A program made the translations under genes and the position numbers. 64,000 nt of DNA from the NCBI RefSeq assembly GCF_013282155.1, contig NZ_BLWI01000011.1, forward strand, positions 124,001 through 188,000. The letters are read 5' to 3'. Origin of the DNA: Sulfitobacter sp. HGT1. GTDB taxonomy: Bacteria; Pseudomonadota; Alphaproteobacteria; Rhodobacterales; Rhodobacteraceae. The notes beneath the pieces were generated by a model. That model did no database searches and was not told where the DNA came from. It was given only the letters and a program-made list of their open reading frames with translations. Every line of letters begins with the position of its first letter. The first letter of the stretch is position 1. This document shows positions 48,615 through 64,000 of this stretch, piece after piece.

Positions 48615-48642
48615 CACCTGCGTCCTACAAAAGGAATTGTAT

Positions 48643-50028
48643 ATGTCCAGCACAGTCAAAAAGCAGTCCCGCAAAGGCGCTGCACAGAAATCGGCCAAAA
48701 GCACGGTGGTCCCAGATATGCTCCAAGCGAACGTGACAGTTGAAACAAATGCGCAGTTGATTGCCCGCCGCGAACTGGCTGTGCCACGTGGTGTTGCCTC
48801 TGCCGCGCCGATATATGCAAAATACGCCGAGAACGCAGAGCTTTGGGATGTTGAAGGCAACCGCTATATCGATTTCGTTGGCGGTATTGGTGTGCTGAAC
48901 ACAGGCCACCGTCACCCAAAGGTGATCGCGGCAGCAAAAGCCCAAGAAGACCAGTACACCCACACCAGCTTTCAGGTTGTGCCTTACGGCCCTTATATCG
49001 AGCTGGCCGAGAAACTGAACGCGCTGGCCCCCGGTGATATGCCGAAAAAGACGCTGCTGGTCACCACAGGTGCCGAAGCGGTTGAAAACGCTGTTAAAAT
49101 TGCACGCGCTGCAACGGGTCGCCCCGGTGTGATCGCCTTTACCGGCGGATATCACGGTCGCACGCTGCTGACGCTGGGCCTGACTGGCAAAGTGTCGCCC
49201 TACAAAAAAGACGTGGGTCCTTTCCCGTCCGACATCTTCCGCGCGCCTTTCCCGTCCCAGCGTGACGGTATCACCGTGCAGGATGCGATTACCGGCCTGA
49301 AAAACCTGTTCCTGACAGATGCGCAGCCCGAACGTGTTGCTGCCATCATCATCGAACCCGTACTTGGCGAGGGTGGCTATACCCCCGTCCCATTCGACAT
49401 GATGCGCCAACTGCGCGACATCTGCGACGAACATGGCATCCTGTTGATCGCTGACGAAGTACAGGCCGGTTTCGGCCGCACAGGTACGTGGTTCGCAATC
49501 GAACATTCCGGCGTTGTGCCTGACCTGATCACCGTGGCGAAATCCATGGCGGGCGGCTATCCTCTGGCGGGCGTGATTGGCCGTGCCGATGTGATGGATG
49601 CAATGGCCCCGGGCGGCTTGGGCGGCACCTATGGCGGCAACCCTGTTGCTTGCGCCGCAGCCTTGGCAGCCATCGCCGCGATCGAGGAAGAAGGCCTGCT
49701 GGCGCGATCAGCGTCGATGGGTGATCACCTCAAGGCGCGCTTTGCCGAGATCGGCGCACGCTCCGCACCGTTCCGCATGTGGGATATCCGCGGTTTGGGT
49801 GCTATGGTTGCAGTCGAATTCGTGACGGATTTTGAAACAGCAGCGCCTGACGGCGGCTTTACCAAACGTGTCATCGCCCATGCGATGAAGCGCGGCCTGT
49901 TGCTGCTTAGCTGTGGCATGCATGGCAATGCCATCCGTGTGATGGTGCCCCTGACGGCGTCGGATGAAATCATCGAAGAAGGCCTGGCCATATTCGAAGA
50001 GTCTGTTCAGGCTGCAATGGCTGAATAA
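48643..50028 (+). CDS. gabT: 4-aminobutyrate-type class III aminotransferase
   Basis: A 461-residue class III PLP aminotransferase, closest in plan to GABA transaminase. Features are YIDFVGGIGVLNTGHRHPKV, TTGAEAVENAVKIARAATGR, FTGGYHGRTLLTLGLTG, IIEPVLGEGGY, LIADEVQAGFGRTGTWF with the cofactor Asp, and the Schiff-base lysine in TVAKSMAGGYPLAGVIG. AAGGA lies 8 bases before ATG 48643. The first 25 residues are Lys/Ser-rich and may be a loose extension. Regulation by the divergent cupin protein fits amine induction. No gabD is adjacent. Confidence 0.9.
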   Translation: MSSTVKKQSRKGAAQKSAKSTVVPDMLQANVTVETNAQLIARRELAVPRGVASAAPIYAKYAENAELWDVEGNRYIDFVGGIGVLNTGHRHPKVIAAAKAQEDQYTHTSFQVVPYGPYIELAEKLNALAPGDMPKKTLLVTTGAEAVENAVKIARAATGRPGVIAFTGGYHGRTLLTLGLTGKVSPYKKDVGPFPSDIFRAPFPSQRDGITVQDAITGLKNLFLTDAQPERVAAIIIEPVLGEGGYTPVPFDMMRQLRDICDEHGILLIADEVQAGFGRTGTWFAIEHSGVVPDLITVAKSMAGGYPLAGVIGRADVMDAMAPGGLGGTYGGNPVACAAALAAIAAIEEEGLLARSASMGDHLKARFAEIGARSAPFRMWDIRGLGAMVAVEFVTDFETAAPDGGFTKRVIAHAMKRGLLLLSCGMHGNAIRVMVPLTASDEIIEEGLAIFEESVQAAMAE

Positions 50029-50144: not shown

Positions 50145-51761
50145 TTAATCGAAGGGCACAAAGCTCGAAGCCTGCGCGCGGCTCCAGCGGGTTTTGTTGC
50201 CCTTGTAGTCCTGTGCCTTGTCATCAAGCAGATACCCTTCGGGAAGGTAGCCATAGACCTCGTCGCCTTGCACCATGCTTTTGTCGCCTTGGCGCAGCAT
50301 CATATGGCGGGGGAGAAACTCACTCGGGTTTTCCAGCCCCGCAGCGCCTGTCATTTCACCCAACGCTTTCAGGGTATTGCGATGAAACCGGGCAACGCGT
50401 TCGCTTTTGTGGCCGACATCCAACGCGCGTTGGCGGGTGGGGTCTTGGGTTGCGACACCAACGGGGCAATGGTTCGTGTGACATGCCTGCGCCTGAATAC
50501 AGCCGATCGCAAACATGAAACCGCGCGCGGAATTGCACCAGTCTGCCCCCAAGGCCAAGGCCCGCGCGATGTCAAAGGCCGATACGACCTTGCCCGCCGC
50601 GCCCAGCTTGACCTGATCGCGAATGCCGGCACCCCGAAGCGTGTTGTGCACAAAGGTAAGCCCCTCGACCATCGGCATACCGACATGGTTGGCAAACTCA
50701 AGCGGTGCAGCCCCGGTGCCGCCTTCGGTGCCGTCGACCACGATGAAATCAGGGACAATGCCGGTTTCCAGCATCGCTTTTACCATACACATGAATTCAC
50801 GCTGGTGGCCGATGCACAGCTTGAACCCCACCGGTTTGCCGCCCGACAAGTCCCGCAGTTGACCCAGGAAATCCATCATCTCGATCGGCGTTGTAAATGC
50901 CGAATGCGCCGCAGGGGACACGCAATCCTGCCCCATCGGCACGCCGCGCGCCTCTGCGATTTCCTTGCTGATCTTCGAGGCTGGCAACATGCCGCCATGC
51001 CCCGGCTTTGCGCCTTGGCTTAGTTTAACCTCGATCATCTTGATCTGATCGCTACTGGCTTGATCCCTGAACTTTTCGGGGTCGAATTGCCCGTCATCGG
51101 TGCGGCAGCCGAAATAGCCCGAACCGACCTCATAGATCAGATCACCCCCGCCGGAGCGATGATAACGGCTGACCCCGCCTTCGCCTGTGTCATGCGCAAA
51201 ACCGCCCATCTTGGCACCTTTGTTCAGGGCGCTGATGGCGTTTGCGGAAAGCGATCCAAAGCTCATCGCGGAGATATTGTAGATCGACGCATCGTAGGGC
51301 TGTTTGCAATCCTTGTTCCCGATACGGACGCGAAAATCAGTGTTTTCAATATGGACGGGCTGGACAGAGTGGGTCACCCAGGAATAGCCCGCATCATAGA
51401 CCCGCATCCGGGTCCCGAAGGGCCGGGCGTCCTCTTGACCCTTGGCGCGTTGATAGACCAACGACCTGTCGTCGCGGCTAAAGGGTTCTTCATCCTGATC
51501 GGATTCAATCAGGTATTGTCTGATTTCCGGGCGAATCCCCTCAAAGAAGAACCGCATGTGGCCGAGCACCGGATAGTTGCGAAGGATGGAATGTTTTTCC
51601 TGAATGACGTCGTAGACGCCCATCGCCGACAGGACCCCGAACAGGACAAGCGGCACGATGAACCAGAGCGACCAGGTGATCAAAAGGATAAGCGACAGCA
51701 AGGCTAAAAGCAGCACCCCCGCGAACGTACCAAAGCGGGCGAGGGAAGAGATTCTTTTCAT
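50145..51761 (-). CDS. Membrane-anchored FMN-binding glutamate synthase-like protein
   Basis: A 538-residue protein with the FMN/[3Fe-4S] central domain of glutamate synthase. Evidence is YNISAMSFGSLSANAISALN, KPGHGGMLPASKIS, VVDGTEGGTGAAPLEF and the cysteine cluster CIQAQACHTNHCPVGVATQD. Two hydrophobic segments at the N-terminus (about residues 12-45) anchor it to the membrane. There is no glutaminase domain. AGGAG lies 6-7 bases before the ATG at 51761. It may be an oxidoreductase that takes ammonia or acts on a glutamate-like substrate; the exact reaction is unknown for this branch. Confidence 0.88.
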   Translation of the reverse strand: MKRISSLARFGTFAGVLLLALLSLILLITWSLWFIVPLVLFGVLSAMGVYDVIQEKHSILRNYPVLGHMRFFFEGIRPEIRQYLIESDQDEEPFSRDDRSLVYQRAKGQEDARPFGTRMRVYDAGYSWVTHSVQPVHIENTDFRVRIGNKDCKQPYDASIYNISAMSFGSLSANAISALNKGAKMGGFAHDTGEGGVSRYHRSGGGDLIYEVGSGYFGCRTDDGQFDPEKFRDQASSDQIKMIEVKLSQGAKPGHGGMLPASKISKEIAEARGVPMGQDCVSPAAHSAFTTPIEMMDFLGQLRDLSGGKPVGFKLCIGHQREFMCMVKAMLETGIVPDFIVVDGTEGGTGAAPLEFANHVGMPMVEGLTFVHNTLRGAGIRDQVKLGAAGKVVSAFDIARALALGADWCNSARGFMFAIGCIQAQACHTNHCPVGVATQDPTRQRALDVGHKSERVARFHRNTLKALGEMTGAAGLENPSEFLPRHMMLRQGDKSMVQGDEVYGYLPEGYLLDDKAQDYKGNKTRWSRAQASSFVPFD

Positions 51762-52206
51762 ATTTGCTCCTGCGGATGGGCATTTGATGGGCATTCGGTA
51801 AGGTTGATACAGCCTATAGCATAAAAACTTGAGAATTCACGAACGGATCATCTTTTACCCCGTCAGATATGAAATCCGGTCGTTTGATTTTTTCAACGTC
51901 TGGAAATTATTGGGGTTTAGTGGGTGAAAATAATTTTCCTATATGTTTTTAAAAACAATTGGTTAGTCCGTATTGATCCGGAGCGACTGGAAGGTGTGGG
52001 TATTAAATCCAACGCATACGCGCGATTGTGCAAAATGCGCAGCAAGCGGGCCGGTAAAGGTTCAGTTGCTGTCATGCAGCGCAAAACAACCCTTTTTGCG
52101 GGATAAATTTGCTTGTTTTACGCCTGAATATCTGCGCTCATTTCAGGTATTATTGAAACCCCGCGCACAATGACGGGGGTTCTGAGAAAAAGTTGGGAGA
52201 CTTAAA
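51762..52206 (+). other. Leader region of the TRAP/amine operon
   Basis: No convincing gene is seen. The stretch is AT-rich from about 51820 to 51960 and holds a 14-bp palindrome TGTTTTTAAAAACA (51944-51957). It also contains a hairpin CGCAAAA/TTTTGCG (52080-52100) and a hairpin AACCCC/GGGGTT (52157-52181) close to the ribosome site GGGAG. The 60-codon open frame inside it has no Shine-Dalgarno. Promoter and regulatory leader are likely here. Confidence 0.45.
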
Positions 52207-53166
52207 ATGACGATTTTCAAGTCCATCGCTATCGCTTCCGCACTGCTTGCGGGTACAGCTGTGACAGCACAGGAAAAATTCATCACCATCGGTACAGGCG
52301 GCCAAACGGGCGTCTACTTTGTTGTGGGTCAGTCGATCTGCCGCTTGGTTAACCGTGACAGCGCCACAACCGGTCTGAAGTGCACGGCACCTTCGACAGG
52401 CGGGTCCATCGCCAACATCAACGCGATCAAGGCCGGCGACATGGACATGGGCGTTGCCCAGTCCGATTGGCAGTTCCACGCCTATAACGGTTCCTCGCAG
52501 TTCGAAGGCGACAAGTTCGACAAAGAGCGTGCGGTTTTCTCTGTACACTCCGAACCGTTCACCGTGATTGCACGTGCCGATGCAGGCATCGAAAGCTTTG
52601 ACGACCTTAAGGGCAAGCGCGTGAACGTGGGCAACCCCGGTTCCGGTCAGCTGGCCACGATGGAGGTCGTTCTGGCCGCCAAGGGTTGGACAATGGATGA
52701 CTTTGCATTGGCATCCGAGCTGAAGCCAGCCGAGCAAGCCGCCGCACTGGGCGACAACAAGGTTGACGCAATCATCTACACCGTGGGCCACCCGAACGGG
52801 TCGATCCAGGAAGCCGTTTCCACAGTGGATGCCAAGCTGGTTCCAGTCCAGGGCGAAGCCATCGACAAGCTGGTCGCTGACAACCCGTTCTACGCCTATG
52901 CGTCGATCCCGGGTGGCATGTACAAAGGTACAGACAGCGACGTGAAAACTTTTGGTGTGAAAGCAACCTTCGTGACGTCTTCTGATGTTGCCGACGATGT
53001 TGTGTACGAAGTTGTAAAAGCTGTTTTCGACAACTTTGACCGCTTCAAGAAGCTGCACCCCGCGTTTGAGAACCTCAAGGAAGAAGAGATGATCACGGAT
53101 GGTCTGTCCGCCCCTCTGCATGACGGTGCTGTGAAGTACTACAAAGAGCGTGGCTGGATGGAGTAA
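52207..53166 (+). CDS. TAXI-family TRAP transporter substrate-binding protein
   Basis: A 319-residue periplasmic binding protein. The signal peptide MTIFKSIAIASALLAGTAVT is cut before AQEK. The TAXI hallmarks ITIGTGGQTGVYFVVGQSIC, STGGSIANINAIKAGDMDMG and VGHPNGSIQEA are present. TAXI proteins bind glutamate or other carboxylates and pair with a fused membrane protein. GGGAG lies 8 bases before the ATG. It is the first gene of a run of same-strand genes to 63979, and a hairpin follows its stop. The ligand is unknown. Confidence 0.95.
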   Translation: MTIFKSIAIASALLAGTAVTAQEKFITIGTGGQTGVYFVVGQSICRLVNRDSATTGLKCTAPSTGGSIANINAIKAGDMDMGVAQSDWQFHAYNGSSQFEGDKFDKERAVFSVHSEPFTVIARADAGIESFDDLKGKRVNVGNPGSGQLATMEVVLAAKGWTMDDFALASELKPAEQAAALGDNKVDAIIYTVGHPNGSIQEAVSTVDAKLVPVQGEAIDKLVADNPFYAYASIPGGMYKGTDSDVKTFGVKATFVTSSDVADDVVYEVVKAVFDNFDRFKKLHPAFENLKEEEMITDGLSAPLHDGAVKYYKERGWME

Positions 53167-53184
53167 TCCACCCCTCTAAAATAA

Positions 53185-53211
53185 CCGGAAGCGGGCGCGC
53201 CCCGCTTCCGG
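53185..53211 (+). terminator. Stem-loop between TAXI binding protein and permease genes
   Basis: CCGGAAGCGGG (53185-53195) and CCCGCTTCCGG (53201-53211) form a perfect 11-bp stem without a U-tract. It probably protects the binding-protein message or limits read-through, as the hairpin after xylF may do. Confidence 0.6.
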
Positions 53212-53288
53212 CCCTGCGTTACCGACGATCTACCCAAAGATAATAAAAGTGCACCTGTCCTAAGACGGGGCCGCCAAGGGGACGTAAC

Positions 53289-56057
53289 ATGTCAAACAAC
53301 GATCAACAGCAAGCCGCCGCCGTCGAAGCCGAAGCCGCAGGCCGAGGTGGCCTGAGCCAAACGGAACTGGATGAGCTGGTTGCTTCCTCTGATACCGGTG
53401 GCCGTTCTGCGACAGGGGGCGTTGGTGTTTTCCTTGCCATGACCGCCCTTGCATGGTCGCTGTTCCAGCTTTGGATCGCGTCACCTGTTCCCTTTATTGT
53501 GGGTTGGGGTGTTTTCAACGACACCGAAACCCGTTCGATCCACCTTGCCTTTGCTATTTTCCTGGGGATCGCCGCATTCCCTGCCGCCCGCACCAAAGTG
53601 CAACTGGGCCTTGGCGTCGCGGTTCCCATTATTCTGGCCTATCTGTTCATGGTCGGTGCCAAAGATGGCGTTTCGACATGGTGGATTCCGCTGGTTGCCA
53701 TTGCTGTTGTCGCCACTGTTGTTCTGGGATCCCCCAAAGACCGCATACCGGTTTGGGAATGGATCTTGGCCGTCGTCGGGGCTGCTTCTGCCCTGTATCT
53801 GTTCGTCTATTACCGTGAAATCTCGGGCCGCGTCGGTGCGCCAAACATGCAAGACACCGTTGTTTTCGTCATCGGCATCATGATCCTGCTCGAGGCGACC
53901 CGTCGCGCGCTTGGGCCTGCCTTGATGATCGTTGCGTCCGTGTTTCTGATCTACAACGTGCTTGGTCCGGTCATGCCCGACATCATCGCACACAAGGGCA
54001 ACAGCCTGTCCGAGATCGTGAACCACCAGTGGATCACCACCGAAGGTGTGTTCGGTATCGCGCTTGGTGTCTCAACCTCGTTTGTTTTCCTGTTCGTTCT
54101 GTTCGGCGCATTGCTGGATAAAGCTGGCGCGGGCAATTACTTCATTCAGGTGGCGTTCAGCCTGATGGGTCACATGAAGGGCGGGCCTGCGAAGGCTGCC
54201 GTTGTTTCTTCGGCCATGACGGGCCTCATCTCGGGGTCCTCCATCGCGAACGTGGTGACCACGGGTACATTTACGATCCCGTTGATGAAGAAGGTCGGGT
54301 TCAGCTCTGAAAAGGCGGGCGCGGTCGAGGTTGCCTCGTCTGTGAACGGCCAGATCATGCCACCCGTTATGGGCGCGGCCGCGTTCCTGATGGTTGAATA
54401 TGTCGGTATCCCCTATTTCGACGTGGTCAAACACGCGTTTCTGCCAGCGGTGATTTCCTACATCGCGCTGGTGTATATCGTGCATCTTGAGGCCCTGAAG
54501 GCCGGTATGGTCGGCCTTGAACGCCCCTATACCCCCAAACCCATCATCCAACGCCTGCTGGTTTCCGCGTTTATCGTGGCTTGCATCTGTGCGCTCAGCT
54601 TTGCCGTTTACTATGGTATGGGCTGGTTGCGCCCCGCATTCCCCAACAGCGCGGGCTACATCATCTTTGGTGTGCTGACAGCCGTTTACGCCGCCCTGCT
54701 CTATGTCGGTTCAAAAGAAGAGCCGCTCAAGCTGGACGACCCGAACGCCCCTGTCACACGTTTGCCAATGCCTGGCCCGACCGTACGGTCCGGTCTGCAC
54801 TTTATCCTGCCGATCGTTGTGCTGGTCTGGGCGCTGATGGTTGACCGCTTGTCCCCCGGTTTGTCGGCCTTTTGGGCGACGACCTATATGGTGTTCATCC
54901 TTGTTACCCAGCGTCCGCTGATGGCGATTTTCCGCGGCGAAAGCAAATTCGCCAATGATGTGGTCGAAGGGTTGAAAGACCTGATCGACGGCTTGGTCGT
55001 CGGTGCGCGCAACATGATCGGTATCGGTATCGCCACGGCGACGGCGGGTATCATCGTGGGCGTGGTCAGCCAGACCGGTGTTGGTTCAGCGCTTGCCGAT
55101 GTGGTCGAGGTTCTGTCGGGCGGCAATATCCTTGCAATCCTGTTCCTGACCGCAATCTTGTCGCTGATCCTTGGCATGGGTCTGCCGACCACAGCGAACT
55201 ATATCGTTGTGTCCGCGTTGCTTGCCCCCGTCATCGTAACACTGGGCCAGCAGAACGGACTGATCGTGCCGCTGATCGCTGTGCACCTGTTCGTGTTCTA
55301 CTTTGGCATCATGGCCGATGTGACGCCGCCTGTGGGTCTGGCCAGCTTTGCCGCTGCCGCTGTATCCGGTGGTGATCCGATCAAGACCGGTGTGGTCGCG
55401 TTCTTCTATTCGCTGCGCACCGCCGCCTTGCCGTTCCTGTTCATCTTCAACACCGAACTGCTGCTGATCAACGTGACCATGTTCCAAGGCATATTCGTCT
55501 TCATTGTCGCGACCTTTGCAATGCTGCTGTTCGCGGCGGCGACCCAAGGTTGGTTCCTGGCGAAAAACCGTTTCTACGAAACGATTGCCCTGCTGCTGAT
55601 CGCCTTTACGCTGTTCCGTCCGGGGTTCTGGATGGACATGGTCTTCCCACCCTATCTTGAGGAAGCCCCGGCCGAGATCGTGCAGGCCGCAGCCGATACA
55701 CCTATTGGCCAAGACTTGCGCCTGCGCGTGTCCGGCGTTGGTGATCTGGGCGATCCGATCGAATTCGTTGCGCTGCTGCCGATCGGTGCGGGCACCACGG
55801 GCGAGGAAAAGCTGGAAGCTGCCGGTATCGTGACGCGCATGGATGGCGACAAGATGATCATTGATGATGTGCTGTACAATTCACCGGCGTCGACCGCCGG
55901 TCTGGACTGGGATCAAGAGGTGCTGCGCGTGCTCAAGCCTGTGCCAACACCAAGCAAATACTGGATGTTTATCCCTGCGCTTTTGTTGCTTGCGCTGGTT
56001 GTCTTGCTGCAACGGGGCCGCAACGCGCGCGGCTCCCGCAAGACCGCAGCAGTTTAA
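53289..56057 (+). CDS. TRAP transporter fused permease (DctQM type) with C-terminal extension
   Basis: A 922-residue inner-membrane protein in which the small (4TM) and large (12TM) TRAP subunits are fused, as usual for TAXI systems. The transport core shows SSAMTGLISGSSIANVVTTG, PVMGAAAFLMVEYVGIPY and GMGLPTTANYIVVSALLAP. After the last core segments comes an extra domain of about 170 residues, DUF3394-like, with a PDZ-like loop (YNSPASTAGLDWDQEV) and a final membrane segment. It uses a sodium or proton gradient to bring in the ligand of the preceding protein. Confidence 0.94.
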   Translation: MSNNDQQQAAAVEAEAAGRGGLSQTELDELVASSDTGGRSATGGVGVFLAMTALAWSLFQLWIASPVPFIVGWGVFNDTETRSIHLAFAIFLGIAAFPAARTKVQLGLGVAVPIILAYLFMVGAKDGVSTWWIPLVAIAVVATVVLGSPKDRIPVWEWILAVVGAASALYLFVYYREISGRVGAPNMQDTVVFVIGIMILLEATRRALGPALMIVASVFLIYNVLGPVMPDIIAHKGNSLSEIVNHQWITTEGVFGIALGVSTSFVFLFVLFGALLDKAGAGNYFIQVAFSLMGHMKGGPAKAAVVSSAMTGLISGSSIANVVTTGTFTIPLMKKVGFSSEKAGAVEVASSVNGQIMPPVMGAAAFLMVEYVGIPYFDVVKHAFLPAVISYIALVYIVHLEALKAGMVGLERPYTPKPIIQRLLVSAFIVACICALSFAVYYGMGWLRPAFPNSAGYIIFGVLTAVYAALLYVGSKEEPLKLDDPNAPVTRLPMPGPTVRSGLHFILPIVVLVWALMVDRLSPGLSAFWATTYMVFILVTQRPLMAIFRGESKFANDVVEGLKDLIDGLVVGARNMIGIGIATATAGIIVGVVSQTGVGSALADVVEVLSGGNILAILFLTAILSLILGMGLPTTANYIVVSALLAPVIVTLGQQNGLIVPLIAVHLFVFYFGIMADVTPPVGLASFAAAAVSGGDPIKTGVVAFFYSLRTAALPFLFIFNTELLLINVTMFQGIFVFIVATFAMLLFAAATQGWFLAKNRFYETIALLLIAFTLFRPGFWMDMVFPPYLEEAPAEIVQAAADTPIGQDLRLRVSGVGDLGDPIEFVALLPIGAGTTGEEKLEAAGIVTRMDGDKMIIDDVLYNSPASTAGLDWDQEVLRVLKPVPTPSKYWMFIPALLLLALVVLLQRGRNARGSRKTAAV

Positions 56058-56174
56058 GCAAAAAAACCGATGTGCAAGTTACGCATAGAAGCCATGCACA
56101 GGGCGCTGAGGGCACCAGCATGTCACCTGTTTAATATCCTGAACAGACGGGATATGGACGGTTCAACTTGGGCT

Positions 56175-56199
56175 TCTGGCGGGGATGTTTTCCGCCAGA
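56175..56199 (+). terminator. Stem-loop before the nitrilase-type gene
   Basis: TCTGGCGG (56175-56182) and CCGCCAGA (56192-56199) form an 8-bp stem in the 170-bp gap between the permease and amidase genes. There is no U-tract; it is likely an RNA processing or stability element. Confidence 0.45.
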
Positions 56200-56227
56200 C
56201 CAGCCCCTTTGGACGGAGTGACCAGTT

Positions 56228-57346
56228 ATGACACCTTTCGCAATTGCCGGCGTGCAAATGTACGTGAACGCCTTGGAATCCAACGTCGCGGGTATGATCC
56301 ACCGGCTTGATATCCTGATGGCGCGTTTTCCGTGGACACAGATGGTTCTGTTTTCGGAACTGGCCCCTTTTGGCCCGTTGGACCGCTTTGCCCTGCCGCA
56401 GGAAAATGAAACGCTTGAGCTGTTTCAAGCTGCGGCGCGCAAGCATCGGGTCTGGCTGATTCCGGGGTCTATGTTCTTGAAAAACCCCGAAGACGGCCGC
56501 GTTTACAACACCGCCGTGGTGATCAACCCCGAAGGCGAGATCATCCGCCGTTATGCCAAGATGTTTCCGTTCCGGCCTTACGAATCCGGCATCGCTGCGG
56601 GCACAGAATTCTGCGTATTCGACGTGCCGGAAGTGGGCCGTTTCGGCCTGTCGATCTGTTATGACATGTGGTTCCCCGAAACCACGCGCCAACTGACCAG
56701 CCAGGGCGTCGAAGTTTTGCTGACACCTGTGTTGACCGGCACAACCGACCGCGATGCCGAACTGGCCATCGCGCGTGCCACGGCGGCGCAGTTCCAGTGC
56801 TATGTTTTCGCCGTGAACGGTTTGGGCGCAGGCGGCGTTGGCAAATCTCTGGTTGTTGATCCCACATCCATGGTTCTGCACCAGTCCGCTGGCCAGGAAG
56901 ACATGTTCCCGATCGAGGTCGACCTGTCGATGGTCCGTCGTCAGCGTGAAACCGGCATGAAGGGTCTGGGTCAGGTTCTGAAATCCTTCCGCGACCGTTC
57001 GACCGATTTTTCGGTTTATGATCGCAGCAGCGGAACGGATGCCTATCTGAACACGCTCGGCCCGCTTGAGGTGCCCCATCAGGGGACCCGCGCAGGTCTG
57101 CATGTTGATGTGCCCGCGCAACGGATCCCCGATGCGCCTGTTTTCAAGGGCCAAGAAACCCAGCCCGGTTTCGCGTCGGTTCAGCCTGAATTTGCACCCG
57201 AACCCTTGCCGAACCCAACTGCCGGAACAGCGACCGTTCCGGTCGACGTCCACGCTCATGCTCATGCGGTTGCCCCCGCAGAGACACCCATTCCACCCGT
57301 AAAGCCGGGCATTCATGCTGGCAGCGGAGAAACATCCAGCGGCTAA
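56228..57346 (+). CDS. Nitrilase-superfamily carbon-nitrogen hydrolase
   Basis: A 372-residue cytoplasmic amidase. The Glu-Lys-Cys triad is in MVLFSELAPFGP (Glu 44), RYAKMFPFRPYESG (Lys 110) and LSICYDMWFPE (Cys 143), with HRVWLIPGSMF before them. The catalytic fold ends near residue 285. The last 85 residues are Pro/Ala-rich with HAHAHA and look disordered, which is unusual for the family. The C-N bond is typically an N-carbamoyl or amide of an amine, so it may act on the product of the neighbouring decarboxylase and ligase. GGAG is 9 bases before the ATG. Confidence 0.9.
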   Translation: MTPFAIAGVQMYVNALESNVAGMIHRLDILMARFPWTQMVLFSELAPFGPLDRFALPQENETLELFQAAARKHRVWLIPGSMFLKNPEDGRVYNTAVVINPEGEIIRRYAKMFPFRPYESGIAAGTEFCVFDVPEVGRFGLSICYDMWFPETTRQLTSQGVEVLLTPVLTGTTDRDAELAIARATAAQFQCYVFAVNGLGAGGVGKSLVVDPTSMVLHQSAGQEDMFPIEVDLSMVRRQRETGMKGLGQVLKSFRDRSTDFSVYDRSSGTDAYLNTLGPLEVPHQGTRAGLHVDVPAQRIPDAPVFKGQETQPGFASVQPEFAPEPLPNPTAGTATVPVDVHAHAHAVAPAETPIPPVKPGIHAGSGETSSG

Positions 57347-57359
57347 GCTGAGGCATTTC

Positions 57360-57384
57360 GACCCGACCATTCTTTGGTCGGGTC
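57360..57384 (+). terminator. Stem-loop between amidase and decarboxylase genes
   Basis: GACCCGACC (57360-57368) and GGTCGGGTC (57376-57384) form a perfect 9-bp stem with loop ATTCTTT, without a following U-tract. It lies 40 bp before the next start. Confidence 0.5.
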
Positions 57385-57425
57385 ATAGCATGCAGCAGCC
57401 AAACGCCCATAGCGGAGTACGATTG

Positions 57426-60164
57426 ATGCATTCTATGAACGACTATTCGTCGGCTATACAGTTACGATCAGACCGGTGGAGCGCCTTGCGCGAATCCAGC
57501 ATGGCCCTGACCCGTGGCCCAAGCAAAGAAGAGACCGAAAGGCTGCGGAGCAAATGCCAGGCTCTGTTCGCGTCGCTTGCGCTGATTGAACCTTATTGGG
57601 CGTTTCCGGGCATGCCCGCGTTCGAGCATCTGCAACGGATGCTGAACCACAACAGCTTTGAAGATCTGTCATTTGCCGTCAACCGCATCACCCGCGCGTT
57701 GACCACAGGGGCCTATCGCCGCCGGTCGATTCCGCTGGAGCGCGACAGCATTGACCACGACGAACATGATGACGAAGCGATGCTCTCTCCCGAGGCGCGC
57801 GCCCTGACCAAGCCGTATTTCGAAGTGTTGATCGTTGATGATGTGAACGACCAGCAGGAACGCTGGCTGAAATCCAACGTCAGCCGCATGCGCCGGTCGG
57901 AAGACCCGTTTCATTACGAGGCCGTGGTCGTTAAATCCATCGAAGACGCGCTGATCGCAGTCCTGTTCAACCACAATATTCAAGCCATTGTCGTGCGTCC
58001 CGGATTGACGCTGAAATCCAAAAACGACGAGTCGATTTTGACGCGGTATCTGGCCCGTGCAGGCGGTCAGGAAGAGATCGACAAGTTGCAGCCGGAAAAC
58101 TACGGCCCCGAGCTGTGCCGGATGATCGCCAAAGTGCGCCCCGAGCTTGATGCCTATCTGGTGACCGAACGGTCGGTCGAAGATATCGCCGGTCTTGATC
58201 TGGGGATCTGCCGTCGGGTTTTCTATAATCAGGAAGACTTTATGGAACTGCACCTGAACATTCTGCGCGGTGTTCAGGCCCGTAACAAATCGCCGTTCTT
58301 TACGGCGCTTGTCGAATATTCCAAACAGCCAACCGGTGTTTTCCACGCCATGCCGATCAGCCGCGGCAAGTCGATCACCCGGTCGCACTGGATTCAGGAC
58401 ATGGGTGCGTTCTACGGCCCGAACATCTTTCTTGCCGAAACCTCTGCCACCTCGGGGGGGCTGGACAGCTTGCTGGAACCGCACGGCCCCATCAAGGAAG
58501 CGCAGGAACTGGCATCGCGGGCTTTCGGGTCCAAGCAGACGTTCTTTGCCACCAACGGCACGTCGACCTGTAACAAGATCGTCGTTCAGGCGCTGGTACG
58601 TCCCGGTGATATCGTGCTGGTCGACCGCGATTGCCACAAGTCGCACCATTACGGCATGGTGCTGGCCGGTGCGCAGGTCTGTTACCTTGATAGCTATCCG
58701 CTGAACGAATATTCCATGTATGGCGCTGTGCCCCTGCGCGAGATCAAGCACCAGTTGCTGGCGCTGAAAGCGGCGGGCAAGCTGGATCAGGTGCGCATGC
58801 TGCTGCTGACCAACTGTACCTTTGACGGCCTGGTGTATAACGTTGAACGCGTCATGGAAGAATGTCTGGCGATCAAGCCCGACCTGATCTTCCTGTGGGA
58901 CGAAGCGTGGTTTGCCTTTGCCCGGTTCAACCCGACCTATCGCCAGCGCACCGGCATGAACGCCGCCAACACCCTGCGCGAAAAGTTCAAATCCGCCAAG
59001 CACGCCGAAGCCTACGAAAAACAACAGGCCGAGCTGAAAGACGCGGATGACGAGACGCTGATGAATACGCGCCTGATCCCGCCGCCAAAGTCGCGGGTGC
59101 GGGTCTATACCACGCAATCGACCCATAAAACGCTGACATCTTTGCGCCAAGGGTCGATGATCCACGTCAACGATCAGGATTTCAAGGGCGAGGTCGAACA
59201 GTCGTTCCACGAAGCCTATATGACCCACACGTCTACATCGCCGAACTACCAGATCATCGCGTCACTGGATGTGGGCCGGCGTCAGGTGGAATTGGAAGGG
59301 TTCGAATTCGTCCAGCGCCAGATCGAAGCGGCGCTTTCGATGCGGCGTGCCATTGCCGACCATCCGCTGCTGTCGAAATACTTCAAGGTGCTGACCGCAG
59401 GTGACATGATCCCCGAAGAATATCGCGAAAGCGGGGTGACCAGTTATTACGATCAGGAACAGGGCTGGACCGACATGTGGGACTGCTGGGAGAAAGACCA
59501 GTTCGTTCTGGACGCCAGCCGTGTGACCTTGCTGGTTGGCGGGACAGGCTGGGACGGCGACACGTTCAAGACCGATATCCTGATGGATAAATACGGCATC
59601 CAGATCAACAAGACATCGCGCAACACCGTGTTGTTCATGACCAACATCGGCACGACTCGGTCCAGCGTTGCCTATCTGATCGAGGTTTTGGTCGAGATCG
59701 CCAAATCGCTGGATGATCTACTGGATGACGCCAGCAAGATGGAGCGCCGGTCATTCGACAATCGCGTGGCGAACCTGATGGAAAACTATCCGCCGCTGCC
59801 TGATTTCAGTCGTTTTCATGATGCGTTCCGTACCGATAGCGTGACGTCGGAAGGGGATATTCGCACCGCCTTCTTCCTCGCTTATGAGGAAAAGAACACG
59901 GATTATCTGGATCTTGACGGCACCCTGCGCGAGGCGATGGATGCGGGTAAAACCGTGGTGTCGGCCAGCTTTATCATCCCCTATCCTCCCGGCTTTCCGA
60001 TCCTTGTCCCCGGGCAGGTCGTCAGCCAGGAAATCCTGTCGTTCATGCGTGCTTTGGATGTCAGCGAAATACACGGCTACCGCCCCGATCTGGGGCTACG
60101 CGTCTTTACCGAAGCAGCGCTGAAACGCGTGCGGAAGAAAAATCTTTCGTCTTCACCTGAATAA
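57426..60164 (+). CDS. Orn/Lys/Arg decarboxylase-type fold I PLP enzyme
   Basis: A 912-residue PLP protein. The N-terminal part (about 130-240) resembles the response-regulator-like wing domain of the family (FEVLIVDDVNDQQERWLKS, AVVVKSIEDALIAVLFNHN). The catalytic domain has AETSATSGGLDSLLEPHGP, FATNGTSTCNKIVVQALV, DRDCHKSHHYGMVLAGAQV, FLWDEAWFAFARF and the Schiff-base lysine in STHKTLTSLRQGSM (Lys about 568). A C-terminal domain follows. It should decarboxylate a basic or related amino acid, although other chemistry is possible. Start 57426 or 57435. It is longer than the E. coli enzymes (about 710-750 residues). Confidence 0.85.
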   Translation: MHSMNDYSSAIQLRSDRWSALRESSMALTRGPSKEETERLRSKCQALFASLALIEPYWAFPGMPAFEHLQRMLNHNSFEDLSFAVNRITRALTTGAYRRRSIPLERDSIDHDEHDDEAMLSPEARALTKPYFEVLIVDDVNDQQERWLKSNVSRMRRSEDPFHYEAVVVKSIEDALIAVLFNHNIQAIVVRPGLTLKSKNDESILTRYLARAGGQEEIDKLQPENYGPELCRMIAKVRPELDAYLVTERSVEDIAGLDLGICRRVFYNQEDFMELHLNILRGVQARNKSPFFTALVEYSKQPTGVFHAMPISRGKSITRSHWIQDMGAFYGPNIFLAETSATSGGLDSLLEPHGPIKEAQELASRAFGSKQTFFATNGTSTCNKIVVQALVRPGDIVLVDRDCHKSHHYGMVLAGAQVCYLDSYPLNEYSMYGAVPLREIKHQLLALKAAGKLDQVRMLLLTNCTFDGLVYNVERVMEECLAIKPDLIFLWDEAWFAFARFNPTYRQRTGMNAANTLREKFKSAKHAEAYEKQQAELKDADDETLMNTRLIPPPKSRVRVYTTQSTHKTLTSLRQGSMIHVNDQDFKGEVEQSFHEAYMTHTSTSPNYQIIASLDVGRRQVELEGFEFVQRQIEAALSMRRAIADHPLLSKYFKVLTAGDMIPEEYRESGVTSYYDQEQGWTDMWDCWEKDQFVLDASRVTLLVGGTGWDGDTFKTDILMDKYGIQINKTSRNTVLFMTNIGTTRSSVAYLIEVLVEIAKSLDDLLDDASKMERRSFDNRVANLMENYPPLPDFSRFHDAFRTDSVTSEGDIRTAFFLAYEEKNTDYLDLDGTLREAMDAGKTVVSASFIIPYPPGFPILVPGQVVSQEILSFMRALDVSEIHGYRPDLGLRVFTEAALKRVRKKNLSSSPE

Positions 60165-60181
60165 GAAAAGGACCCAAACCT

Positions 60182-61642
60182 ATGACCACGACTGTTCTCA
60201 AGAATATCTCGGAAATCCGCCGGTTCTTTCACCGAAACGAAGACCCGATCTATTTCATTTCGGCGACCAATTTTAACCTGTTGGGTCTCGATGAATGGGT
60301 GAAGAACTTTAAATATATCTGCTACATCGACTGCTACGGCGGCAAGCACCCGAACGTGTTCTGCCCGTCCGAACAGCCCCATGCCGAATTCCAAAGCATC
60401 GAAGACATCAACAACTATCTGTTGCAGCACAAAGAAGTCATCGACTTTATCAAGCGCCGCGGTGGCAAGCCCAAGTTCGTGTTCCTGATGTTCGATGAAG
60501 AAACCGAGCGTCTGTCGAAAGAGCTGGGTGCCGAAGTCTGGTTCCCCAAGGCCAAGCTGCGCACCAAGATGGACAACAAGATCGAAACCGTCCGCATCGG
60601 CAACAAGGCGGGCGTGCCGTCGGTGCCAAACGTGCTGGCCGAGGTTAAGGATTACGAAGACCTCAAGAAAACCTGTGAGAAAGCGGGTATCGGTCACGAT
60701 CTGGTGCTGCAATCGGCCTTTGGCGACAGTGGCCACACCACGTTCTTCATCAAATCCGAGGCCGACTTCCGCCGTCACGAATCCGAGATCGTCGGCGAGG
60801 GCGAGATCAAGATCATGAAGCGCATCGATTGCCGTGGTTCCGCGATCGAGGCCTGTGCCACCAAAGAAGGCACGATCGTTGGCCCGTTGATGACCGAACT
60901 TGTTGGTTTCAAAGACCTCACACCCTATCGGGGTGGCTGGTGTGGTAACGAAATCCTGTCCACGGCCTTCCCGCCGAAAGTGCGCCAGCAGGCCCGTGAA
61001 CTGACCTTCAAATTTGGTGAACAGCTGCGCAAGGAAGGCTACCGTGGCTATTTCGAGCTCGATTTCCTGATCGACAAAAAGACCGGCGATCTTTGGTTGG
61101 GCGAATTGAACCCGCGCATCACCGGCGCGTCCTCCATGACCAACCACGCGGCTTTCGCCCATGCCGATGCCCCTCTGTTCCTGTTCCACCTGCTTGAATT
61201 CTCGAAAAAGAAATTCAATCTGGACACAACAGAGCTGAACAACCGTTGGGCTGATCCTGCGATGATCGATGGCTGGTCGCAGATGGTGATCAAGCACACC
61301 GACGACAGCGTCGATATCTGTAGCGATGCGCCTGAAACCGGCATCTACAAGATGCTTGAAGACGGTCGTGTGGTGTTTGACCGGTTTGACTATCACCGTC
61401 GTGCGGTTGAATCCGAAAACGAAGCGTTCTTTTTGCGCATCCTCCAGCCCGGCGATTACCGCTATGAAGGGGCCGATATTGGCATCCTTGTGACCCGTGG
61501 CCGGTCGATGACCAAATCATTCCAGTTGAATGAACGCGCGAAAAAGTGGATTCACGGCATCAAGCAGTCGGTTCACGGCCGTCCTTTGCCAGTGGCAGAG
61601 GCAGGTCCGGCGTTTTCAGACCCGGCTTTTAAAATCCTCTAA
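60182..61642 (+). CDS. ATP-grasp ligase (biotin carboxylase-like)
   Basis: A 486-residue ATP-grasp enzyme. The nucleotide-binding part includes RTKMDNKIETVRIGNKAGVP, LVLQSAFGDSGHTTFFI (glycine loop) and IKIMKRIDCRG. Mg2+ ligands sit in GYFELDFLIDKKTG and LWLGELNPRITGASSMTNH, with the Glu-x-Asn motif. A C-terminal domain of about 150 residues follows. No biotin-carrier partner is adjacent, so an amide- or peptide-forming ligase is more likely than a carboxylase. It starts 17 bp after the decarboxylase and is clearly co-transcribed. Confidence 0.85.
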   Translation: MTTTVLKNISEIRRFFHRNEDPIYFISATNFNLLGLDEWVKNFKYICYIDCYGGKHPNVFCPSEQPHAEFQSIEDINNYLLQHKEVIDFIKRRGGKPKFVFLMFDEETERLSKELGAEVWFPKAKLRTKMDNKIETVRIGNKAGVPSVPNVLAEVKDYEDLKKTCEKAGIGHDLVLQSAFGDSGHTTFFIKSEADFRRHESEIVGEGEIKIMKRIDCRGSAIEACATKEGTIVGPLMTELVGFKDLTPYRGGWCGNEILSTAFPPKVRQQARELTFKFGEQLRKEGYRGYFELDFLIDKKTGDLWLGELNPRITGASSMTNHAAFAHADAPLFLFHLLEFSKKKFNLDTTELNNRWADPAMIDGWSQMVIKHTDDSVDICSDAPETGIYKMLEDGRVVFDRFDYHRRAVESENEAFFLRILQPGDYRYEGADIGILVTRGRSMTKSFQLNERAKKWIHGIKQSVHGRPLPVAEAGPAFSDPAFKIL

Positions 61643-61660
61643 GGTTCGAGAGGCCAGCAC

Positions 61661-62632
61661 ATGCTTTGGCGTGCGATATCAGAAGAAACGCCCGGTCCCA
61701 AATGGGCCGGGCTTTTCGCCGAATATTGGCCTCACTACCGTAAATGGTGGCTGAAGGAGGGTGAATCCGTGCGCCCGACCTATGCCGAATGCGTGCGTGC
61801 GCTGAAAAAGCACATGCCCGAGATGATCCCGCTCTACGAAGAACTGTGCGAACAAGCAGGCGGCGGCGATCTGGCAGCGCGGTTCCTAAGCTTCTACTGC
61901 CCGCCCCCTTACCTTTCGGGGTGCAGTCAGGCGGTTTGGGGCGGCAGGGAACCCGTGCTGGTGCGCAATTATGATTATAACACCAACGCCTTTGACAGTC
62001 TGGTTTTGCACACGGGGTGGCAAGGCCGCAAAGTCATGGGCACGTCGGACGGGCTGTTCGGGTTGGTGGACGGCGTGAATGACGCGGGCCTGTCGATTTC
62101 GTTAACCTTTGGCGGCAGGCGGGTTGTGGGTGTCGGATTTGGCGTGCCGCTGATTCTGCGCTATGTTCTGCAAACGTGCGAAAACACCGAACAGGCGGGC
62201 GAAGTATTGGCCCGCGTCCCAACCCACATGAGCTATAACGTCACTGTGCTGGACCGCAAACGCAAGTATCTGACCGCGTTTATGGCCCCCGACCGCGAGA
62301 CAATCATCACCAATGCCGCCGTGGCCACCAACCATCAAGAAACCGTTGAATGGATCAGCCACGCGCGTTTCACTGCGACGGTTGAACGCGAACGCTATTT
62401 GTTGCAACGGCTGCGCTTTCATCGCGACCCCGAAGAAAAATTCATCGGCACGTTCCTAAAGCCGCCCCTGTATTCCCATGCCTTTAACGCCGGGTTTGGA
62501 ACGCTTTATACTGCTGTGTACCGGCCCCGCAAACGTCAGATGGAACTGCGTTGGCCCGGCACTGTCTGGTCCCAAACCATCGACACTTTCGAAGAAGGGT
62601 CGCGTAACGTTCTGCTGCCCGGTGCTGCCTGA
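61661..62632 (+). CDS. C45-type Ntn hydrolase / acyltransferase
   Basis: A 323-residue protein of the acyl-CoA:6-aminopenicillanate acyltransferase-like family. The candidate nucleophile is Cys 88 in YLSGCSQAVWGG, preceded by a Gly as in precursors that cut themselves, which would release an 87-residue N-terminal chain. The next motif VLVRNYDYN is typical of the group, as is ATNHQETVEW later. Such enzymes hydrolyse or exchange an amide acyl group. It lies 18 bp after the ATP-grasp gene, so the pair could make and break the same kind of bond. Confidence 0.85.
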   Translation: MLWRAISEETPGPKWAGLFAEYWPHYRKWWLKEGESVRPTYAECVRALKKHMPEMIPLYEELCEQAGGGDLAARFLSFYCPPPYLSGCSQAVWGGREPVLVRNYDYNTNAFDSLVLHTGWQGRKVMGTSDGLFGLVDGVNDAGLSISLTFGGRRVVGVGFGVPLILRYVLQTCENTEQAGEVLARVPTHMSYNVTVLDRKRKYLTAFMAPDRETIITNAAVATNHQETVEWISHARFTATVERERYLLQRLRFHRDPEEKFIGTFLKPPLYSHAFNAGFGTLYTAVYRPRKRQMELRWPGTVWSQTIDTFEEGSRNVLLPGAA

Positions 62633-62656
62633 CCCTTTCACCCTAGGAGCCTGCCC

Positions 62657-63979
62657 ATGTCCCATATTTTTCCCCGTCATACCCGCAACCTCCCGCCGGT
62701 CGCTGTCAGCGGCAAAGGGTGCTATTTAACCGATGCCAGTGGCAAACAATATCTGGATGCATCTGGGGGGGCGGCAGTGTCGTGTCTTGGTCATGGCGAC
62801 GTCGAGGTGATCGACGCGATCAAGGCGCAGTTGGACAGTCTGGCCTATGCACACACGGGTTTTTTCACGTCTGAACCTGCCGAAACCCTTGCCGATCTGC
62901 TGATCAAACACGCCCCCGGTGATCTGGACCGCGTCTATCTGGTGTCCGGCGGGTCAGAGGCGGTCGAGGCCGCGCTCAAGCTGGCGCGCCAGTATCACGT
63001 GGAACGCGGCGAGCCGGAACGGGGCCGCATCATCGCCCGCAAGCAAAGCTATCACGGCAATACGATCGGGGCGCTGTCGGCAGGGGGCAATGAATGGCGT
63101 CGCGCGCAATTCGCGCCGCTGCTGCTGGACATCAGCCACATTGACCCGTGCTATGAATACCGCCTGAAGCGTGACGGTGAAACGCCCGAAGAATACGGCA
63201 TTCGCGCCGCGAACCTGCTTGAGGAAGAATTGCTGCGCGTCGGGCCTGAGACCGTCATGGCCTTTATCGCGGAACCTGTGGTGGGGGCGACCTCTGGCGC
63301 GTTGACCGCTGCACCGGGGTATTTCAAACGCATCCGCGAGATTTGCGATCAATACGGTGTTTTGCTGATCCTTGACGAGGTCATGTGCGGCATGGGGCGC
63401 ACCGGCGCGCTGTTTGCCTGCACTCAAGAGGGTGTTTCCCCCGATATCCTGTGTATCGCCAAGGGTTTGGGCGGCGGGTATCAACCCATCGGTGCCATGC
63501 TGTGTACCGCACATATCTATAAAACCATCCAGGACGGCACAGGGTTCTTCCAGCACGGGCATACTTATATCGGTCACCCTACGGCGGCGGCTGCCGGGGT
63601 TGCTGTTGTCTCTGCCGTGCTGGGCCGCGATCTGCTGTCCAATGTGCAGCGGCAGGGCGACACATTGCGCAATGCGTTGACCGCTGCCTTTGGGCAGCAC
63701 CCGAATGTTGGTGATATCCGGGGGCGTGGCCTGTTTATGGGGGTTGAAATGGTCGCCGACCGAGAGACAAAAGCCCCCTTTGATCCGTCCCGTGGTATCG
63801 CCGCCAAGATCAAGAAACATGGCTTCGAGAATGGCCTGATCTGCTATCCGATGTCCGGAACAATTGATGGCAAAACCGGAGATCACGTGCTGCTGGCCCC
63901 GCCTTTTATCATCACCGACGCGCAGATCGACGAATTGGTTGAAAAGCTGGGTAAAAGCATCACCCAAGCGCTGGCCTGA
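62657..63979 (+). CDS. Class III aminotransferase
   Basis: A 440-residue PLP aminotransferase. SGGAAVSCLGHGDVEVIDAI, VSGGSEAVEAALKLARQYH, RKQSYHGNTIGALSAGGNEW, LILDEVMCGMGRTGALF with the cofactor Asp, and the Schiff-base lysine in CIAKGLGGGYQPIGAML are all present. It is of the omega-amino-acid/diamine type and differs from gabT at 48643. It would convert an amine to an aldehyde or transfer nitrogen to a keto acid. The gene is complete; its stop lies inside the terminator stem. Confidence 0.92.
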   Translation: MSHIFPRHTRNLPPVAVSGKGCYLTDASGKQYLDASGGAAVSCLGHGDVEVIDAIKAQLDSLAYAHTGFFTSEPAETLADLLIKHAPGDLDRVYLVSGGSEAVEAALKLARQYHVERGEPERGRIIARKQSYHGNTIGALSAGGNEWRRAQFAPLLLDISHIDPCYEYRLKRDGETPEEYGIRAANLLEEELLRVGPETVMAFIAEPVVGATSGALTAAPGYFKRIREICDQYGVLLILDEVMCGMGRTGALFACTQEGVSPDILCIAKGLGGGYQPIGAMLCTAHIYKTIQDGTGFFQHGHTYIGHPTAAAAGVAVVSAVLGRDLLSNVQRQGDTLRNALTAAFGQHPNVGDIRGRGLFMGVEMVADRETKAPFDPSRGIAAKIKKHGFENGLICYPMSGTIDGKTGDHVLLAPPFIITDAQIDELVEKLGKSITQALA

Positions 63980-63998
63980 CCGTCAGGTCAGGGTTTTT
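63975..63998 (+). terminator. Terminator of the TRAP/amine operon
   Basis: CCTGACC (63975-63981), loop GTCA, GGTCAGG (63986-63992), then GTTTTT. The aminotransferase stop codon (63977-63979) is within the left arm, so the operon ends here. Confidence 0.88.
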
Positions 63999-64000
63999 GC

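What the first reader, a model, noticed from the sequence alone, without database searches (positions are those of the whole stretch)
52207..63979. Possible undescribed uptake-and-conversion system: TAXI-TRAP plus amidase, decarboxylase, ATP-grasp ligase, C45 Ntn hydrolase and class III aminotransferase
Seven same-strand genes run from a leader region to a terminator that overlaps the last stop. The last four are separated by 17-24 bp. From known families: TAXI-TRAP imports a carboxylate or amino-acid-like ligand; nitrilases break C-N bonds; the PLP decarboxylase family makes amines; ATP-grasp enzymes make amides; C45 enzymes cleave or swap acyl amides; class III aminotransferases remove terminal amines. 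This resembles the acylate-transaminate-deacylate logic of the gamma-glutamyl polyamine (Puu) route, but with entirely different enzymes. The joint pathway and its substrate are inference. The cluster may exist in databases without an assigned function.
Basis: partly seen in the sequence, partly recalled or inferred. Interest (0 to 1): 0.85.

Follow-up and report, generated by a model that had tools for sequence, protein, structure and literature searches.

The report
Conserved glutamate-GABA amide enzyme operon
A marine bacterium carries a conserved but unexplained set of enzymes that probably turns an imported acidic amino acid such as glutamate into GABA and then builds and breaks amide bonds, using a decarboxylase whose substrate pocket looks charge-reversed compared with its known relatives.

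Summary
The seven genes are real, run one way, and have the stated spacing and terminator. The conserved unit is smaller: nitrilase, decarboxylase, ATP-grasp ligase and C45 enzyme stand in order in 73 of 74 complete close relatives. TAXI-TRAP (43 of 73) and the aminotransferase (25 of 75) are optional. In more distant loci ligase, C45 and nitrilase occur with no decarboxylase beside them, for example in an arginine-to-GABA operon. The decarboxylase keeps its PLP site, but the loop that carries an acidic residue in lysine, ornithine and arginine decarboxylases reads Asn (108 of 108) and Arg (107 of 108). Away from the ligase it sits beside AspT-family antiporters in 7 of 9 loci. So it probably acts on an acidic amino acid, not a diamine precursor. 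A TAXI-TRAP of a related bacterium takes up glutamate (PMC12632250), and gabT lies upstream. Best reading: glutamate to GABA, then amide formation and cleavage with an unknown partner. This weakens the Puu-like diamine model and strengthens the idea of a joint pathway. Every substrate is inferred. The papers searched do not describe the cluster.

The parts
47915..48427 (-). HTH-cupin (XRE-cupin) regulator, divergent from gabT; context, not part of the core
   Evidence: 77% identical over 171 residues to the Pfam HTH_3 + Cupin_2 protein of L070; its cluster has 21 members in the 80 loci
48637..50028 (+). gabT-like class III aminotransferase (4-aminobutyrate transaminase); context
   Evidence: TIGR00700 545.6 bits, cutoff 506.65; a relative lies upstream in 31 of 73 loci, a lower bound because flanks are 10 kb
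50145..51794 (-). glutamate-synthase-domain protein on the opposite strand, between gabT and the operon; context
   Evidence: PF01645
52207..53166 (+). TAXI-type TRAP solute-binding protein; optional partner
   Evidence: TIGR02122 353 bits, cutoff 84; nearest PDB 8s4j, 9ibo, 9oz4
53289..56057 (+). fused TRAP permease (DctQM type); optional partner
   Evidence: TIGR02123 651 bits, cutoff 321
56228..57346 (+). NIT: nitrilase-superfamily C-N hydrolase with Glu44, Lys111 and Cys144 read from the sequence; core
   Evidence: PF00795; no NCBIfam subfamily over its cutoff
57360..57384 (+). 10-bp perfect stem-loop in the NIT-DEC gap, no T tail
57426..60164 (+). DEC: OKR-fold PLP decarboxylase; Schiff-base Lys codon at 59127; Asn/Arg loop NKTSRN from 59607; core
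   Evidence: PF01276; 9n0n/9n0o E 1e-248; active-site columns
60182..61642 (+). GRASP: ATP-grasp ligase, labelled 'biotin carboxylase' by its family model; core
   Evidence: NF005096 750 bits, cutoff 684; predicted fold, mean pLDDT 88
61661..62632 (+). C45 autoproteolytic amide hydrolase or acyltransferase, Cys88; core
   Evidence: NF040521 187 bits, cutoff 85; predicted fold, mean pLDDT 94, isopenicillin N acyltransferase Z 29.7
62657..63979 (+). AT3: class III aminotransferase; optional partner
   Evidence: NF005685 760 bits, cutoff 485; among 69 close relatives with enough flank, found only with the TRAP permease (23 of 40 against 0 of 29)
63971..64000 (+). intrinsic terminator overlapping the last stop codon

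Best explanation
It is a conserved amino-acid catabolic cassette whose heart is an amide-forming ligase (GRASP) paired with an amide-cleaving Ntn enzyme (C45), usually with a nitrilase-type amidase (NIT) and DEC. Most likely chain: TAXI-TRAP imports L-glutamate or a close relative (family inference); DEC removes the alpha-carboxyl to give GABA (inferred from the charge-reversed loop and the AspT partners of its relatives); GRASP uses ATP to make an amide on GABA or on its precursor (inferred from fold); AT3 or GabT removes the terminal amine; C45 and NIT cut the amide(s) and release products to central metabolism (inferred from fold and catalytic residues). Shown here: gene order and conservation, intact catalytic residues, folds by prediction, the Glu-to-Asn change and the Arg in the loop, recurrent partners. 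Not shown: any substrate, the second half of the amide, and the order of steps.
For: Core four in order in 73 of 74 complete close relatives. In 359 genomes drawn from the class, C45 at 50% identity or more occurs only in GRASP genomes, 9 of 9 (threshold chosen after seeing the data). DEC: Asn at the LDC/ODC Glu526 column in 108 of 108, Arg four columns on in 107 of 108, PLP-site residues kept. AspT-family genes beside 7 of 9 DECs that have no ligase in the stretch. GRASP-C45 inside an arginine-to-GABA operon. gabT upstream in 31 of 73 loci. A TAXI-TRAP of Cereibacter sphaeroides is identified, by deletion and complementation, as the sodium-dependent L-glutamate system (PMC12632250, section 10 read). 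AT3 in 23 of 40 loci with the TRAP permease and 0 of 29 without; an AT3 of the same NCBIfam family lies directly upstream of GRASP in L150.
Against: Ureohydrolases of the agmatinase family lie beside the cassette in L112, L138, L139, L145 and L147, and by eye L112 has an ABC transporter operon behind it, which also fits guanidine or diamine chemistry. A urea-transporter-domain protein opens the operon in L160 and L161. GABA needs no ligase to be degraded, so the role of GRASP is unexplained. The cassette sits in an ectoine-catabolism cluster in L155/L156, where aspartate would be the acid at hand. 23 of 69 loci show neither TRAP nor the Opp-type importer tested. The solved relative 9n0o has Ile, not Arg, in the loop. 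A TAXI deletion in Psychrobacter affected growth on acetate, butyrate and fumarate (PMC5812351, passage), so TAXI proteins are not always glutamate-specific. Six genomes of the class draw have a C45 relative at 37-45% identity and three a NIT relative at 41-53% but no GRASP.
Confidence: 0.4

Rival explanations
1. One reading: DEC makes a diamine (putrescine, cadaverine or agmatine), GRASP acylates one amine, AT3 transaminates the other, C45 removes the acyl group, a Puu-like route with unrelated enzymes.
For: Ureohydrolase neighbours over the TIGR01230 agmatinase cutoff in L138, L145 and L147; gabT and an HTH-cupin regulator nearby; near second copies of the ligase, a DAO-family oxidase in L162 and L164 and a PuuC-like aldehyde dehydrogenase in L164.
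Against: Charge-reversed loop in all 108 DECs; AspT-family neighbours where E. coli AdiA, CadA and SpeF have adiC, cadB and potE; AT3 absent from 46 of 69 loci with enough flank; no decarboxylase beside GRASP-C45-NIT in six loci; the oxidase is in 2 of 3 and the aldehyde dehydrogenase in 1 of 3 second-copy loci of that type.
Confidence: 0.2
2. Biosynthetic module: DEC supplies GABA or beta-alanine, GRASP couples it into a dipeptide-like amide, C45 acts as an acyltransferase or turns the product over; the product is a solute or signal.
For: The GRASP fold matches PylC, an amide ligase, as well as it matches biotin carboxylases; the C45 fold is closest to isopenicillin N acyltransferase, which moves acyl groups; rhizobial DEC-GRASP-C45 plasmid loci lie near radical-SAM RiPP genes.
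Against: Importers of four kinds (TAXI-TRAP, Opp-type ABC, DctPQM, amino acid permease) and GabT-type enzymes accompany the cassette, which points to breakdown.
Confidence: 0.2
3. DEC uses aspartate (to beta-alanine) and the module handles beta-alanine amides.
For: aspT and aspartate 4-decarboxylase flank DEC in L142 and L168; the cassette lies in an ectoine cluster in L155/L156; NIT matches include beta-ureidopropionases.
Against: gabT and the arginine-to-GABA operon point to GABA.
Confidence: 0.15
4. Neighbouring genes with unrelated functions.
For: TAXI-TRAP, AT3 and the downstream genes do vary.
Against: Order and co-occurrence of the core across many genera.
Confidence: 0.05

Closest known systems
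Lysine/ornithine/arginine (OKR, fold type I) decarboxylases: E. coli CadA, LdcC, SpeC, SpeF, AdiA
   Same: Family, and the PLP-site columns 220, 221, 245, 330, 332, 364 and 367 (CadA numbers) are identical in the window protein and all five E. coli enzymes
   Different: Side-chain loop: Glu526 of LDC/ODC is Asn, and column 530 (Asp in AdiA) is Arg; relatives away from the ligase have AspT-family neighbours, not adiC, cadB or potE
Rv2531c of Mycobacterium tuberculosis (PDB 9N0O by PMC12910592; 9n0n, 9n0p same molecule name), putative amino acid decarboxylase
   Same: Closest solved relative over nearly the whole length, E 1e-248; Asn at the same position
   Different: Ile replaces the loop Arg. 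Its activity is reported as not clarified (PMC12910592, passages)
Biotin carboxylase / PurK / PylC ATP-grasp enzymes
   Same: Fold, Z 22-23
   Different: 9-17% identity in the listed rows; ELNPRITG where the 2-oxoglutarate carboxylase subunit has EMNTRIQV; no biotin carrier among the nine window proteins scanned
Isopenicillin N acyltransferase and other C45 enzymes
   Same: Fold Z 29.7, family model over cutoff, Cys88 invariant in 28 rows
   Different: 12% identity; no substrate evidence
Gamma-glutamyl-putrescine (Puu) route
   Same: Possible ligate-transaminate-hydrolyse logic
   Different: No Puu enzyme family among the window operon's proteins
Arginine to GABA operon of Shinella (L138)
   Same: Shares GRASP, C45 and, divergently and about 7 kb away, a NIT relative
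   Different: No DEC in the stretch; GABA would come from 4-guanidinobutyrate (pathway recalled)

Membership tests
Basic amino acid (Lys/Orn/Arg) decarboxylases | PLP-binding residues incl. Schiff-base Lys | tested here: met
   K at CadA column 367 in 108 of 108; T220, S221, H245, D330, A332, S364 also constant; 366 is H in 107
Basic amino acid (Lys/Orn/Arg) decarboxylases | acidic residue in the substrate side-chain loop (role of Glu526 recalled) | tested here: not met
   Asn in 108 of 108 and Arg at column 530 in 107 of 108
Biotin carboxylase | catalytic EMNxRxQVEH signature (recalled) | tested here: not met
   ELNPRITGASS in the window; N310, P311, R312, G315 invariant in 32 rows
Biotin carboxylase | ATP-grasp fold | tested here: met
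   Foldseek and VIA
C45 Ntn hydrolase/acyltransferase | family model and fold | tested here: met
   NF040521 over cutoff; 2x1c Z 29.7, rmsd 3.2, 303 aligned
C45 Ntn hydrolase/acyltransferase | autoproteolysis in front of Cys88 | not testable with these tools
   Cys88 invariant in 28 rows
Nitrilase superfamily | Glu-Lys-Cys triad (recalled) | tested here: met
   E44, K111, C144 by sequence; PF00795
Nitrilase superfamily, named subfamily (AguB, deaminated-glutathione amidase, amidases) | NCBIfam cutoff | tested here: not met
   best is formamidase, 70.9 of 406 bits
TAXI-TRAP transporter | TAXI SBP plus fused DctQM | tested here: met
   TIGR02122 and TIGR02123 over cutoff
TAXI-TRAP transporter | L-glutamate as ligand (not shared by all members) | not testable with these tools
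   family inference only
Puu pathway | PuuA-, PuuB-, PuuC-, PuuD-family genes in the operon | tested here: not met
   no such family among the window operon's proteins
Acid-resistance decarboxylase with antiporter | antiporter gene beside the decarboxylase | tested here: not met
   an AspT query finds nothing in the window at E 1e-20; met in 7 of 9 relatives away from the ligase

The most novel reading that the evidence does not exclude
DEC and its relatives are a new class of OKR-fold decarboxylase for acidic amino acids, with a charge-reversed pocket and AspT-type antiporter partners, and GRASP-C45-NIT are a new ATP-driven amide-masking route that runs through GABA or a gamma-glutamyl amide, so that enzymes labelled as arginine/lysine decarboxylase family, biotin carboxylase and penicillin-type acyltransferase form one undescribed pathway.
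Probability: 0.35. Interest if true: 0.75.

Novelty: new variant of a known kind. Interest (0 to 1): 0.55.

Why it matters
The ligase is encoded in at least 552 stretches found by one pattern scan and in 35 of 36 genomes of the window's genus, yet the labels 'biotin carboxylase' and 'Orn/Lys/Arg decarboxylase' are not borne out by the residue tests made here. The work offers a testable prediction for a decarboxylase clade whose solved member, Rv2531c, has no known activity, and a defined candidate pathway for amino acid or GABA turnover in a common group of marine bacteria.

Tried and rejected
Rejected: GRASP as a biotin carboxylase (signature absent, no carrier among the nine window proteins scanned). 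C45 by sequence against PDB gave only chance or marginal hits; the fold search settled the family. Rfam: no hit. Ectoine pathway as the general context: seen only in L155/L156 among the loci scanned. NIT-DEC hairpin as a universal element: a stem of 7 or more in 19 of 78 loci against 27 of 780 mononucleotide shuffles, so common but not constant. C45 without GRASP (L199-L204) gave no common neighbour except, by similarity, an Opp-type ABC operon in L203; NIT without GRASP sits in such an operon in L205, and L206 shows Opp-type parts within a few kb. Literature searches for the gene set: searches gave no paper; some searches listed nine papers in all, none about the set by title or abstract start. 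The Rv2531c structure paper is not held. PMC7866039 passages did not bear on Glu526. VIA lists give no evidence that other ATP-grasp families are excluded.

Bias: the 80 named loci are the best 80 of 552 by identity to the window ligase, so counts on them describe close relatives. Six of the 80 were too short for the four-gene count; the one strict miss, L041, has all four genes in order with a split DEC match. 'No decarboxylase beside' is local: the plasmid of L139 carries a DEC about 550 kb away (L170), and the genomes of L162-L165 also carry the main cassette's ligase. L162-L164 are near-identical and count as one event. Class draws shrank from 385 to 372 to 359 genomes; the co-occurrence test uses 359. 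G413 has GRASP, DEC, NIT and C45 but does not appear in the later draws and was left out. G231 was counted as a GRASP genome although its match is a fragment, and G374 although it scores below the cutoff. Identity thresholds were set after seeing the lists and the genomes are related, so the P values are only a guide. Of the 9 DEC loci away from the ligase, 7 came from a plasmid list that I picked from (two of them Ensifer); the 2 from the class draw (L183, L184) both have AspT genes. AT3 without a TRAP gene in the stretch does occur outside the 69 loci, in L150 and L152.

Full report
Observation. The seven genes exist as described, on one strand, with 17, 18 and 24 bp between the last four and a terminator over the final stop. 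The window lies in an unnamed 3.8-Mb genome; its closest named relatives by the ligase gene are Sulfitobacter and Roseobacter genomes. Upstream lie gabT, an HTH-cupin regulator divergent from it, and, on the other strand, a glutamate-synthase-domain gene. Beyond the terminator the next ORF on the same strand begins 126 bp on; it and its followers were not scanned against families.

What is conserved. A scan of species genomes with the ligase gave 552 encoding stretches, of which the best 80 were kept. In 74 of these with enough flank, 73 pass a strict test for NIT, DEC, GRASP and C45 in that order with gaps under 400 bp; the remaining one has all four with a split match. TAXI plus TRAP permease are upstream in 43 of 73. 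The gene within 400 bp after C45 is the aminotransferase in 25 of 75, a CoA-transferase III in 10, an Opp-type binding protein in 6 plus 2 more distant ones, a ureohydrolase in 1, and none of the tested references in 31. The aminotransferase is present in 23 of 40 loci with the TRAP permease and 0 of 29 without. In the genus, 35 of 36 genomes carry the ligase over its family cutoff; the other has a partial match at a contig edge. In even draws of the class and phylum it is rare, 11 of 385 and 11 of 398, own genome included. It is patchy even in the window's own family: in the phylum draw 2 genomes of other genera of that family have it and at least 20 do not.

Independent contexts. A Shinella plasmid and a Roseateles-labelled one have amino acid permease, agmatinase-family enzyme, 5-guanidino-2-oxopentanoate decarboxylase, aldehyde dehydrogenase, GRASP, C45, D-amino acid dehydrogenase, racemase and RidA, with Lrp and a NIT relative (59% identity over 279 residues to the window NIT) divergent. 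That is chemistry from arginine to GABA (pathway recalled), with no DEC in the stretch. Second ligase copies in three genomes of the genus have DctPQM transporter genes divergent from GRASP-C45-NIT, again with no DEC beside (L162-L164); L165 has NIT-GRASP-C45. In L155/L156 the order is doeA, doeB, Lrp, NIT, GRASP, C45, DEC, aldehyde dehydrogenase, aminotransferase, then a 352-residue protein and eutC. L145/L147 put a ureohydrolase before NIT-DEC-GRASP-C45. Rhizobial plasmids have DEC-GRASP-C45 followed by an Opp-type ABC importer and amidase. L160/L161 begin with a urea-transporter-domain protein. L150 has an aminotransferase of the same NCBIfam family and GRASP, but no C45. So the ligase-C45 pair is the most constant element; L150 is the clear exception with enough flank, and in L134 only a C45 fragment remains.

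Decarboxylase. Aligned with five E. coli enzymes, 108 DEC-type proteins (107 loci plus the window; 112 loci matched, 107 covered the site, all distinct) keep the PLP-site residues, but the column of LDC/ODC Glu526 is Asn in all 108 and column 530 is Arg in 107. AdiA has Thr and Asp at these columns. I recall that this Glu contacts the substrate's terminal amine; no paper I read confirmed it. DECs with no ligase in the stretch sit beside AspT-family genes in L142, L143, L167, L168, L169, L183 and L184, not in L141 or L170, whereas in E. coli AdiA, CadA and SpeF have adiC, cadB and potE close by. AspT-type carriers handle acidic amino acids (recalled). Together this points to an acidic substrate. 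The closest solved protein is Rv2531c, whose activity is reported as not clarified (PMC12910592, passages); it has Asn but Ile in the loop.

Ligase and hydrolases. The predicted ligase structure (mean pLDDT 88) ties with biotin carboxylases, carboxyaminoimidazole ribonucleotide synthases (PurK) and PylC at Z 22-23; its metal-site sequence is ELNPRITG where a carboxylase subunit has EMNTRIQV. The C45 model (mean pLDDT 94) matches isopenicillin N acyltransferase at Z 29.7, well above the next family at 24.2, with Cys88 at the place of the nucleophile. NIT has the Glu-Lys-Cys triad but fits no named subfamily.

Co-occurrence. In the class draw of 359 genomes 15 have a C45 relative; the nine at 50% identity or more are all GRASP genomes, the six at 37-45% are not. 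NIT: 11 of 359, seven at 60% or more and one at 54% in GRASP genomes, three at 41-53% not. DEC: 10 of 372, eight at 64% or more in GRASP genomes, two at 51-52% not, and these two have AspT genes beside them.

Mechanism. Glutamate import by TAXI-TRAP is supported by family (PMC12632250 section 10; PMC5812351 passages, which also report effects on other acids), GABA formation by DEC by the loop and partners, and use of GABA by gabT and the Shinella context. What GRASP joins to what is unknown; candidates are an amide on the GABA carboxylate, on the glutamate gamma-carboxylate before decarboxylation, or an N-acyl-GABA. C45 and NIT would cut it. A masking step of this kind would explain why ligase and hydrolase travel together, but a biosynthetic role is not excluded.

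Verdict. The unit is four genes, not seven, and the decarboxylase is probably not a diamine maker. The decarboxylase and ligase activities should not be taken from annotation.

Noticed in passing
window 57360-57384: Perfect 10-bp stem-loop without T tail between NIT and DEC; stems of 7 bp or more, of differing sequence, occur in this gap in 19 of 78 relatives against 27 of 780 shuffles. It may set the ratio of upstream to downstream expression.
   Followed up: partly
L166 9216-10313 (second C45 of the same genome): A second C45 protein, 46-47% identical to the operon's, lies beside esterase, DUF4130-UDG and radical-SAM genes with no ligase gene in the stretch.
   Followed up: no
L142, L143, L167, L168, L169, L183, L184: Rv2531c-type decarboxylase beside one or two AspT-family antiporters, with aspartate 4-decarboxylase in L142 and L168 and an HdeA/HdeB-family chaperone in L142: a possible unrecognised decarboxylase-antiport system of alphaproteobacteria.
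   Followed up: partly
window 57080-57343: About 90 residues at the C-terminus of NIT look proline- and alanine-rich; in 9 of 11 listed matches the alignment ends at or before residue 327, mostly near 285.
   Followed up: no
L056 13783-14613, also L061, L069, L072, L077, L086: Beta-keto acid cleavage enzyme gene (PF05853, scanned in L056) after the aminotransferase, or after C45 in L072, hinting at a beta-keto acid product in some lineages.
   Followed up: no
L138 13782-15569: 'Alanine racemase' is a fusion of a racemase domain with an arginase-family domain.
   Followed up: no
L160 3283-5457 (and L161): Fusion of a urea-transporter domain with an M23 peptidase domain at the head of a DEC-GRASP-C45 operon.
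   Followed up: no
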